From the NCBI RefSeq assembly GCF_000235365.1, contig NC_016454.1, forward strand, positions 186,001 to 250,000: DNA of 64,000 bases, written 5' to 3'. The DNA is from Eremothecium cymbalariae DBVPG#7215. Taxonomy: Eukaryota; Ascomycota; Saccharomycetes; Saccharomycetales; Saccharomycetaceae. The position numbers and the translations under genes are program-made. The notes beneath the pieces were generated by a model. The model searched no databases. It had not been told where the DNA came from and saw only the letters and a program-made list of their open reading frames with translations. Of this stretch, positions 18,980-45,254 are shown in pieces (the stretch's first letter is position 1; each line of letters begins with the position of its first letter).

Positions 18980-19208
18980 AATAGTATGTAGCCGGCGGCA
19001 GGGGCGTGTTAGTTATAGACCGTATGACAACGTGCAGTCCCAGAACAATTGTTCTATGCCCTCCTCGGAGGGATGGCTGCTGGGCTGCGGCTGGCGCCTG
19101 CTGCTTCTGCTGAGGCGGCCGTGGACCGCGGCCGGGCTGGGCGGCCGGCTGCCGCCCACACCGCCGAATAGTGCAGACCAGCGGGACACCATGGACGCAA
19201 AGTCCATT

Positions 19209-19595
19209 TCAAAAATTGACTCTGTTGTTAGGGGCCCCCTTTCTAAGTGTGGTTCTCAAGCGGTCAAACTCGCCCTGGCTCAAGGTGGACAAGTCCACCA
19301 TGTTGGGGTTGTCGGTGGCTTCGCTCAGGCTGCCCTTGCGGGAGCCGGGCTGGAAGGCGCTGCCCTGGGGCAGCGGCACGGCGGCGGCCGCTGGGCCGTC
19401 GGCAAGAGGCATTGGGGCGCCCGCGCCCGCGCCCGCGGGCGCGGGCGCGGGCACCTGCTTCTTTTCTCTGTACTCATCGGCAAAGAGAAGCGTTGTCTTC
19501 CCGGAGCCGATGTTCGAATGGTTACTGCCCATCATGCCGGAGCGCGCGTGTTTGTTTCTGTTGTAGGCTGTGAACTGGTCCAAAATACCCACCAT
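19209..19595 (-). CDS. SPG4: SPG4, stationary-phase protein
   Basis: Short protein required for survival at high temperature in stationary phase in S. cerevisiae; no molecular function is known. The C-terminus MVDLSTLSQGEFDRLRTTLR followed by KGAPNNRVNF aligns with the S. cerevisiae end VDISNMSQGEFLRLYESLRR followed by GEPDNKVNR. The N-terminus (FTAYNRNKHARSGMMGSNHSNIG, then KTTLLFADEYR) also matches in spacing. The middle is a low-complexity Pro/Ala/Gly stretch (PAPAPAGAGAGAP) encoded by a 34-bp perfect palindrome. The length of 128 compares with 115. The start is the ATG at 19593-19595, with TATAAAAA at 19665-19672, 70 bp upstream. It corresponds to YMR107W; the conserved gene order ends here, since YKU80 (YMR106C) does not follow. 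Confidence 0.9.
   Translation of the reverse strand: MVGILDQFTAYNRNKHARSGMMGSNHSNIGSGKTTLLFADEYREKKQVPAPAPAGAGAGAPMPLADGPAAAAVPLPQGSAFQPGSRKGSLSEATDNPNMVDLSTLSQGEFDRLRTTLRKGAPNNRVNF
19419..19452. repeat. 34-bp perfect GC palindrome inside SPG4
   Basis: The sequence is its own reverse complement over 17 + 17 bases centred on CCCGCGGG (centre between 19435 and 19436), with no spacer, and is built of GCGGGC units. It encodes alternating Pro-Ala and Gly-Ala codons in SPG4. Confidence 0.95.
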
Positions 19596-28959: not shown

Positions 28960-29737
28960 ATACTGACAGTGTAGTAAACTCTATAAAAACTTAGTACTGT
29001 GTCTCAGCAACTGTAAATCGTGTACTGCTTTTTTTATAATTATTTAAGCTGAAGAGGGTTTGTTCCACTTTCCTGGACAGTATATGTGTGATGAGATGCG
29101 TCATTAAAATTGTTCGATTAATTGTTCTCGAGCTTTTCAACGGTATTCGCTTCTTTTTATCTTCACCACTTTTATATCACGTGACCTTTAATTTTGGCAG
29201 CCCCATATGCTGGTAGCTCTCAAAACCCGTTGGACGCTAACAGTCTCAAGTTCAAGATCGTAGACACAGCGCCTTTGTAGAAAGACTGCTAAGTAGTTTC
29301 CATTATGTGAAGGGCGCTATGGTTGGTCACGTGCTAGCTTGAACTTCTCGTCACGTGCCAACTAATACTTAGGTTGATGATCAGTTACTGTTTATATAGT
29401 CTCTAATCTGGCTCAACTACCCTCTGGGGATCTAGCTGGACCTATATCTAATCTAATCTAGCTAGTTTGGGTCTTCTTATATAGTTTCTGTTGTCCTACT
29501 TAAGCTCTCTTGCTTACTTGCTATGCAGATTCCTAGCCGATAACAGCTCAGTGGTTATCTTGACACTTCTAACAACTCTGATTCGCTGCTTCTTTGTCTT
29601 GTTATCGTGACTATCAACATGCTCCTTAGCCTGACTATCATAACTATCGGGATGCTCTTTTGATTTTACGACAACGACATGCGCATCAAGAAGCTAGTTA
29701 TTCTTTGGTAACGTTAACGAGACATCCGCGTTTCGAT
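28960..29737. other. Intergenic upstream of SUA5 and tRNA-Gly, with three CACGTG boxes
   Basis: No gene is seen. CACGTG (Cbf1/Pho4-type E-box) occurs at 29178-29183, 29328-29333 and 29352-29357. TATATAG-like boxes, a CTAATCTAATCTAG repeat and two similar GACTATCA...ATGCTC segments near 29611 and 29634 give it the look of an old retroelement flank, as is common beside yeast tRNA genes, but no long terminal repeat can be delimited. Confidence 0.45.
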
Positions 29738-29808
29738 GCGCAAGTGGTTTAGTGGTAAAATCCAACGTTGCCATCGTTGGGCCCCCGGTTCGATTCCGGG
29801 CTTGCGCA
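29738..29808 (+). tRNA. tRNA-Gly(GCC)
   Basis: 71-nt cloverleaf without intron. Acceptor GCGCAAG pairs with CTTGCGC, the anticodon stem CAACG/CGTTG encloses a TTGCCAT loop with anticodon GCC, the T arm contains GGTTCGATTCC, and the discriminator is A. A T run follows at 29812-29818 for polymerase III termination. It appears identical to the S. cerevisiae tRNA-Gly(GCC). Confidence 0.98.
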
Positions 29809-30027
29809 TTCTTTTTTTCGGCGTGAAAAGTTCTCGAGACTCAAGAGATAATCAATTATGCACGGCGCGTCCTCGAGATTCTGAAATAAGCAGGAGGTAC
29901 ATAATAGTTCAAATTTTTTGCACCTCGAAATTTTATGAAGGCTAGAGGGTATCGCATCTCATTTGCAAAGATAAACTGAAATTTCTGCCGTTTATGTAGT
30001 TCTAAGTCAGGGTTTCACTAGTAGGTT

Positions 30028-35058: not shown

Positions 35059-36392
35059 TTACGTTTTATCCAGAGACATATGTTTAAAATTATCAGTAAC
35101 ATTATCGACATCTTTACTCGTTTGCCTAATTGAATTTGGGTTCTCGTCATTTAAATAAAGTGAAAGTCTTTCATCCTTCACATCCAGTATAGAATTTTGG
35201 TCATCATTTTGCAACGTTGTCAACTTTATGATATACTCTAATAAGGAAAGAGATTTACTTAACTCTCCGTGCGATTCGTCCTCTTGGGCACTATCGTAAA
35301 CTTCTTCTTCGTCGCAACCTTCATTCGCATCCTTTCCTTCGTCAATTTCCTTAGTACCCTCTTTTTTTGTTCTTCTTCTGCCTCTTCTTCGCCAGCCTCA
35401 CTCTCTGAGTCATCAACGACTTCTTCGTATTCTCCAAAGGCAATCCACTCAATATCTTCCGTAGATGAAGAATTGCCGTCCCTTTTTAAGTTTTTGTCGA
35501 GTTTCAACACAAGGACCGGAGAGTCACGTTCCTCTAGGTTCAATAGTTTTCCAGACACAGTGAAAAATAGACGAACTATTTGATGTATTTGATAACGCGA
35601 TTTTTTTGGTTGATCTTCTTTCAAGTCATGGTATCGACCATCATTAAAATTCTCCCTCAATTCAATGTAGTAATTGTAATCAATATTATCCTTGTTGTGA
35701 GCAGCATATCTAACAATTCTTAAATCACACCGAGTGATATGTTCCTTCCAAATTATTTTGGATGACTTATCAAATACATTGAAAGACGTCACTTCAAATA
35801 AAGGCCCCACTTGGATATCGTGTTCATATTGAGTAGCAGCAGCATTTTCGTTCGATTTAATTACCATGTTGGATGCCTGCAGTAGTAAACTAGGTGATAC
35901 ATTATTGGGAAGTTTCATTGAAGAACTGACTCCAGATGTTGTCATAGATAGATTAATCAGGGGGATGACTAACTCAATGCGATGGATGAGCTCATTCATT
36001 CTTGCCTCCATCAATGCTACTGCACTCTTTTTCCCTCCATTCTCTTTCAACCCTATAAAATTAACGCCTGCGGAATCTAATGCAAGCTGGTCCATTTCAA
36101 TGTTGAATCCATTTAACTCATCCTTCAAGTCTAGAATCAAAGACAAGGTGGAACCCAGATTTGTATTCCCTCTAACAACACAAAGCTTGATTAAACCAAT
36201 AGCATTATTAATAATATCAATGCGCGTTTCCAACTGCCTTCGTAACTTTTCAAGCCTGTTAGCATCTTTTTGAGGAACGTTGGTCAGAAACTTTGTGAAT
36301 TGTTTTATTGCATAAGTAGATGCAAGTGAAACACTGGACTTGATAGCAAATGAAACTGCCTGGCTGCCTGCTCTAGAAAGTAACTCATCCAT
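35059..36392 (-). CDS. YRB30: YRB30, Ran-GTP-binding protein, with an apparent -1 frameshift
   Basis: Yrb30-type protein that binds Ran-GTP in nuclear transport. The zero frame runs 36392-35259 (377 residues): a helical N-half (MDELLSRAGSQAVSFAIK, KLRRQLETRIDIINNAIGLI) and a Ran-binding-like part (DKSSKIIWKEHITRCDLRIV, DIEWIAFGEYEEV). It ends after an unlike basic tail. The -1 frame from 35361 to the TAA at 35059-35061 encodes 100 more residues of plausible acidic and helical sequence, EGTKEIDEGKDANEGCDEEE and later SLSLLEYIIKLTTLQNDDQN and ILDVKDERLSLYLNDENPNS. The shift occurs at A AAA AAG (35367-35361), in the correct phase for -1 slippage. The joined product has 444 residues against 440 for S. 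cerevisiae Yrb30. A missing A in the homopolymer is the plain alternative. It lies next to RAD54, as in YGL164C-YGL163C. Confidence 0.85.
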
Positions 36393-44977: not shown

Positions 44978-45183
44978 AGAATCACTAATCTGTTATTCGC
45001 CTCCTTATATATTATCTGATGCTCTTGAAAATCAGCCAAAAGTCGATCAGCTGCTTAAACAATGCCTGTCAATGCACATACCTTGCGTTAAAAGAGCAAT
45101 ACCAACTTGAACATAACCAGTTCCATCTTGAAACAAGAGAAAACTAATATCTCCTCCTGTATGAGGAGATAAGTAAAAAAGAG

Positions 45184-45254
45184 TGCGCAAGCCCGGAATC
45201 GAACCGGGGGCCCAACGATGGCAACGTTGGATTTTACCACTAAACCACTTGCGC
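45184..45254 (-). tRNA. tRNA-Gly(GCC), second copy
   Basis: 71 nt, identical base for base to the copy at 29738-29808 but on the opposite strand. Anticodon GCC, no intron; a T run lies downstream on the minus strand (plus-strand AAAAAA around 45175-45180). Confidence 0.98.

What the first reader, a model, noticed from the sequence alone, without database searches (positions are those of the whole stretch)
35059..35400. YRB30 continues in the -1 frame from an A AAA AAG slippery heptamer
The zero frame of YRB30 ends at 35259, but the -1 frame carries on for 100 codons to 35059 with acidic and helical protein-like sequence. The point where the frames must join coincides with T7 at 35362-35368, read on the minus strand as CAA AAA AAG: the heptamer A AAA AAG in exactly the phase for -1 ribosomal slippage (35367-35361). 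Slipping there gives 444 residues, against 440 for S. cerevisiae Yrb30. Either one A is missing from the homopolymer (the plain explanation) or the protein is made by programmed frameshifting, with a short form of 377 residues and a long form of 444. A 6-bp match (GGGUAC just after the site, GUGCCC about 80 nt on) could form a downstream stem, but this is weak.
Basis: partly seen in the sequence, partly recalled or inferred. Interest (0 to 1): 0.8.

Follow-up and report, generated by a model that had tools for sequence, protein, structure and literature searches.

The report
Yeast gene split by sequencing error
A normal yeast gene (YRB30) looks split into two reading frames at a run of seven A's, most likely because the run was miscounted when the genome was sequenced, so this is ordinary rather than a new case of ribosomes slipping.

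Summary
YRB30's 0-frame (377 aa) ends at 35259, the -1 frame is open to 35059, and A7 (35362-35368) is the only run in their overlap. The tail is real Yrb30 sequence: 67% identical to the C-termini of E. sinecaudum and E. gossypii Yrb30, which are single proteins. Programmed frameshifting is poorly supported. A_AAA_AAG ends in G, which eukaryotic -1 signals avoid. The predicted stem starts 1 nt after the site (usual spacer 5-9), z -1.39. None of 11 aligned relatives has Lys-Lys at the aligned site. The same in-phase heptamer occurs 15 times in 137 sampled ORFs. The assembly itself is the best explanation. The genome fits E. cymbalariae DBVPG 7215, sequenced by 454 (inferred). In 200 kb sampled elsewhere, two conserved genes (SEC27, TEX1) are likewise split, and two more open frames seem to break at A9 and A11. 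The shifts go both ways. So about one such break is expected per 50-100 kb. Most likely a homopolymer-length error (0.88), then a true strain mutation, then recoding. Only independent reads can settle it.

The parts
35259..36392 (-). YRB30 0-frame ORF, 377 aa, Pfam PF05508 RanGTP-binding protein over residues 1-301; its last 34 codons (after the A run) are not part of the alignable Yrb30 C-terminus
   Evidence: alignment
35059..35397 (-). -1 frame open stretch (112 aa) carrying the conserved Yrb30 C-terminus (SLSLLEYIIKL...DERLSLYLNDENPNS)
   Evidence: HMM
35362..35368 (-). A7 homopolymer (T7 on +), the only run of 4 or more identical bases in the frame overlap; probable site of a run-length error
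35361..35367 (-). A_AAA_AAG heptamer, in phase for -1 slippage
35352..35359 (-). 5' arm (GGGUACUA) of a predicted 8-bp stem, 1 nt after the heptamer; not clearly beyond chance
35286..35293 (-). 3' arm (UAGUGCCC) of the same stem

Best explanation
In the organism YRB30 is one continuous gene of about 444 codons. In this assembly the A run at 35362-35368 is one base short of what a continuous frame needs, because homopolymer lengths were miscounted in 454 pyrosequencing reads; that splits the gene into a 377-aa 0-frame ORF with a spurious 34-residue end and a conserved C-terminus in the -1 frame. Shown: the split, the conserved tail, and other such breaks in the same assembly. Inferred: that this particular run length is a sequencing or assembly error, and that the strain is DBVPG 7215.
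For: The genome has 8 contigs and 9,669,424 bases. The nearest Yrb30 proteins are from E. sinecaudum and E. gossypii. This fits E. cymbalariae DBVPG 7215, 9.7 Mb in eight chromosomes, sequenced on a 454 GS FLX Titanium at 40x (PMC3276169: Materials and Methods read, other passages seen). Homopolymer-length errors are the dominant error of 454 reads (PMC4023493, passages). Relatives carry the tail in single database proteins. In 20 tiles of 10 kb from contigs C1 and C2, SEC27 is split at or beside an A6 run: its second frame matches residues 634-809 of the solved beta'-COP chain 3mkq_A (yeast, recalled) and E. sinecaudum HER110C. TEX1 is split near A4/G4/A4: its two frames match residues 55-213 and 210-315 of the solved Tex1 chain 7v2w_H (yeast, recalled). 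Two more open frames seem to break at A9 (L012) and A11 (L009), on coding potential alone. Implied shifts are -1 for YRB30 and L012, and +1 for SEC27, TEX1 and L009.
Against: No independent reads or second assembly of this species could be examined. 40x coverage makes an A7 error less likely than at low coverage, and 25 of 27 A or T runs of 7 or more in the 137 sampled ORFs are not at a detected break. The break coincides with an in-phase slippery heptamer, which an error need not do, although 15 of 39 AAAAAAG occurrences in sampled ORFs are in that phase. Just after the site the 0-frame scores nearly as coding-like as the -1 frame (8.3 against 9.3), probably because both are purine-rich. The linker next to the join aligns loosely: beyond the join E. 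cymbalariae has about 12 residues that E. sinecaudum and E. gossypii lack, so homology does not by itself fix the exact point of the break.
Confidence: 0.88

Rival explanations
1. A true, strain-specific or species-specific frameshift mutation: A7 is real, and Yrb30 in this strain ends with a 34-residue abnormal tail and lacks the conserved C-terminus.
For: The run is a mutable homopolymer. The N-terminal RanGTP-binding domain (Pfam 1-301) stays whole without the tail.
Against: The tail has kept 67% identity to two relatives and an open frame to its stop, so any loss would be recent. Comparable breaks in SEC27 and TEX1 suggest that the assembly produces such splits by itself.
Confidence: 0.07
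2. Programmed -1 ribosomal frameshifting (or RNA polymerase slippage) at A_AAA_AAG makes a 377-aa short form and a 444-aa long form.
For: In-phase heptamer in the overlap of the two frames. The -1 frame carries a conserved tail and is open for 102 codons, against at most 33 at 14 other in-phase sites. An 8-bp stem follows.
Against: Eukaryotic signals avoid G as last base and usually have a 5-9 nt spacer (PMC7618472, passages); here the last base is G and the spacer 1 nt. Stem z -1.39, 15 of 200 shuffles as good; downstream folding ranks 5th of 15 in-phase sites. None of 11 aligned relatives has Lys-Lys at the aligned site, and all 11 are single database proteins. The tail is conserved in all 11, which fits a constitutive part better than a minor product.
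Confidence: 0.04
3. An intron removes the frame change.
For: A TACTAA sequence lies at 35356, and a weak GTGAG at 35401.
Against: No 5' splice site of seven tested forms (GTATGT and variants) occurs in 36392-35059; GTGAG to TACTAA is about 45 nt, shorter than usual yeast introns (recalled).
Confidence: 0.01

Closest known systems
Yrb30 / RanGTP-binding protein family (PF05508)
   Same: Residues 1-301 match the family at E 1.2e-103; the -1 frame tail matches the C-termini of Eremothecium Yrb30
   Different: Split over two frames in this assembly; the 11 relatives aligned are single database proteins
454 homopolymer-length errors in genome assemblies
   Same: 454 data (identity inferred), break at an A run, other conserved genes of the assembly split, both shift directions
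   Different: Not proven at this site without reads; the TEX1 break lies among runs of only 4
A_AAA_AAG -1 slippery sequence as studied in E. coli (found in 68 E. coli genes, PMC9307594, passage)
   Same: Same heptamer in the same phase
   Different: A eukaryotic host, where heptamers ending in G are avoided (PMC7618472); spacer 1 nt; not seen in relatives

Membership tests
Yrb30 (PF05508) | RanGTP-binding protein domain | tested here: met
   PF05508 E 1.2e-103, profile 1-303 of 304
Yrb30 (PF05508) | Conserved C-terminal segment seen in other yeast Yrb30 proteins | tested here: met
   Present, but only in the -1 frame: 67% identity over 78 and 81 columns to P0002 and P0003; 12-row alignment
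Eukaryotic -1 programmed frameshift signal | X_XXY_YYZ heptamer in phase | tested here: met
   A_AAA_AAG at 35367-35361; but 15 such sites in 137 ORFs
Eukaryotic -1 programmed frameshift signal | Last base Z not G in eukaryotes | tested here: not met
Eukaryotic -1 programmed frameshift signal | Spacer usually 5-9 nt before a stimulatory structure | tested here: not met
   Predicted stem starts 1 nt after the heptamer; rule
Eukaryotic -1 programmed frameshift signal | Downstream structure more stable than chance | tested here: inconclusive
   z -1.39, 15 of 200 shuffles at least as stable; rank 5 of 15 in-phase sites; pseudoknots not modelled
Eukaryotic -1 programmed frameshift signal | Slippery site kept in relatives | tested here: not met
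Eukaryotic -1 programmed frameshift signal | Measured frameshift product | not testable with these tools
   Needs ribosome profiling, proteomics or a reporter
454 homopolymer-length error | Assembly made from 454 reads | tested here: met
   PMC3276169; that this window is that assembly is inferred from size, contig number and nearest relatives
454 homopolymer-length error | Break at a homopolymer, with similar breaks in unrelated conserved genes | tested here: met
   YRB30 A7, SEC27 at or beside A6; TEX1's overlap holds only runs of 4
454 homopolymer-length error | Independent reads show another run length | not testable with these tools

The most novel reading that the evidence does not exclude
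A7 is real and E. cymbalariae makes full-length Yrb30 only by -1 slippage on A_AAA_AAG, a heptamer of a kind that eukaryotic signals avoid, helped by a stem abutting the site or by RNA polymerase slippage. The conserved C-terminus of a RanGTP-binding protein would then be controlled by recoding in one Eremothecium species.
Probability: 0.04. Interest if true: 0.7.

Novelty: not a real feature. Interest (0 to 1): 0.1.

Why it matters
As a biological claim it matters little. As a caution it matters somewhat: this assembly seems to carry a split gene about every 50-100 kb (2 to 4 in 200 kb of tiles), including SEC27 (called essential in one homologue's name), so apparent frameshifts, pseudogenes or short forms in it should not be read as biology without checking raw reads.

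Tried and rejected
Second frame break in the window at about 19210 (HMM): rejected. The gene there is SPG4-like; its 4 listed homologues are 109-146 aa (the three named ones, from Ashbya/Eremothecium, 109-120 aa) and cover 98% of the 128-aa query, so the stop at 19209 looks natural. Other HMM candidates or late A/T runs were looked at as translations only: L008, L010, L015, L018 and L013, L022, L018. None gave a clear second coding frame; L015 stays unresolved; none of these was tested by homology, and none is counted. Intron: see rivals. No solved structure matches the 377-aa Yrb30 by sequence up to E 1. The tail alone has no Pfam match up to E 1. A tRNA-Lys search of the genome, to see which isoacceptors read AAG, did not complete; ARAGORN on window and 20 tiles, with its bacterial setting, found three tRNAs, none for Lys. 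Literature: 'yrb30' with 'frameshift' and 'yrb30' alone gave 0 papers in the held library. 'frameshift', 'frame shift' and 'homopolymer' have 0 occurrences in the main text of the genome paper. The protein search returned no second near-identical Yrb30 (next best 70%). That absence is uninformative, because no E. cymbalariae SEC27 was among the listed hits either (best 120 of 2950 listed).

Full report
What is there. The minus strand holds a YRB30 gene: the 0-frame ORF 36392-35259 encodes 377 aa and matches Pfam PF05508, RanGTP-binding protein, over residues 1-301 at E 1.2e-103. The -1 frame is open from 35397 to a stop at 35059. The overlap of the two frames is 139 nt, and the only run of four or more identical bases in it is A7 at 35368-35362. 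The phase is CAA AAA AAG, so A_AAA_AAG sits in the -1 slippery phase. A frame-tracking HMM trained on long ORFs of the window and 20 sampled tiles (the 0-frame ORF included, the tail not), not told about the site, placed the change at 35361-35367.

The tail is genuine Yrb30. The -1 frame alone aligns to E. sinecaudum HFL048C (67% over 78 residues, E 1e-30) and E. gossypii AEL296W (67% over 81 columns, E 6e-25). I aligned the read-through protein (444 aa) with 11 of the 75 relatives found; the segment SLSLLEYIIKL..DERLSLYLNDENPNS is recognisable, with substitutions, in all 11, and all 11 are single database proteins. Their DNA was not seen. The linker next to the join is acidic and aligns loosely: E. 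sinecaudum aligns over the join itself (QEREEG against EQKKEG), but E. cymbalariae then has about 12 residues that E. sinecaudum and E. gossypii lack. After the 0-frame stop the -1 frame scores as coding (9.9 against -9.0 for the 0-frame); between the A run and that stop the two frames score alike (9.3 and 8.3), so coding potential cannot separate them there.

Does it look like an assembly error? The window's genome has 8 contigs and 9,669,424 bases. With the nearest Yrb30 proteins in E. sinecaudum and E. gossypii, this fits E. cymbalariae DBVPG 7215, sequenced with 454 GS FLX Titanium at 40x, with gaps closed by fosmid primer walking and PCR products (PMC3276169, Materials and Methods read). 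This identification is inferred. Homopolymer-length errors are the dominant error of 454 reads (PMC4023493, passages).

The HMM listed 10 frame-change candidates in 264 kb, 2 in the window and 8 in the tiles. Three have homology support: YRB30, SEC27 and TEX1. For SEC27 (L017), the second frame matches the COPA/B TPR domain from profile position 27 on, E. sinecaudum HER110C from residue 633 at 57% and the solved beta'-COP chain 3mkq_A at 634-809 (organism yeast, recalled). For TEX1 (L005), the first frame matches residues 55-213 and the second 210-315 of the Tex1 chain 7v2w_H (organism yeast, recalled), and the THOC3 propeller profile is split 5-121 and 123-243, both pieces far below that family's curated cut-off. 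Two are probable on coding potential and run length alone: L012 (a gene with a Helicase_C domain in its first frame, A9) and L009 (no Pfam match, A11). One is rejected: window 19210, SPG4-like. Four (L008, L010, L015, L018) were judged from translations only and are not counted.

The tiles, which were not chosen for any break, thus hold 2 to 4 breaks in 200 kb, or one per 50-100 kb, so about one is expected in a 64-kb window. In 81 simulated breaks at A/T runs of 5 or more, the detector found 36 of 39 lying more than 300 nt from an ORF end, 15 of 16 at 150-300 nt and 5 of 26 nearer than that, so breaks near gene ends are mostly missed. Shifts go both ways: YRB30 and L012 are of the -1 kind, SEC27, TEX1 and L009 of the +1 kind. 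One homologue's name calls SEC27 essential in S. cerevisiae, so its split is hardly a true loss. Chance that a random coding stretch of the same length holds a run at least as long: YRB30 0.032, L012 0.0001, L009 0.0002, SEC27 0.034 (41 nt, run of 6); TEX1's is uninformative at 0.61 (run of 4 or more). The ORFs drawn from were not cleared of YRB30 and L009 themselves.

Against this reading: the run length itself was not checked by independent reads; 25 of 27 A or T runs of 7 or more in sampled ORFs are not at a detected break (the YRB30 and L009 runs are); the TEX1 break lies among runs of only 4; and the base rate rests on two homology-supported cases outside the window.

Noticed in passing
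L017:7160-9653 (G000:C2:340001-350000): SEC27 (beta'-COP) is split into two frames at or beside an A6 run; the second frame matches solved beta'-COP chain 3mkq_A residues 634-809.
   Followed up: yes
L005:1121-2459 (G000:C1:220001-230000): TEX1 (WD repeats) is split into two frames near A4/G4/A4; the two frames match Tex1 chain 7v2w_H 55-213 and 210-315.
   Followed up: yes
L012:1-800 (G000:C1:640001-650000): A gene with a Helicase_C domain seems to break frame at an A9 run near its end.
   Followed up: partly
L009:5171-6356 (G000:C1:460001-470000), minus strand: An open frame with no Pfam match breaks at an A11 run and continues for about 100 codons in another frame.
   Followed up: partly
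window 19020-19500: The SPG4-like gene lies in a strikingly G+C-rich stretch with a CCCGCG/GGGCGC inverted repeat (seen by eye), and coding-like sequence (19020-19210) follows its stop.
   Followed up: partly
window 29737-29809 (+) and 45183-45254 (-): Two tRNA-Gly(GCC) genes on opposite strands.
   Followed up: no
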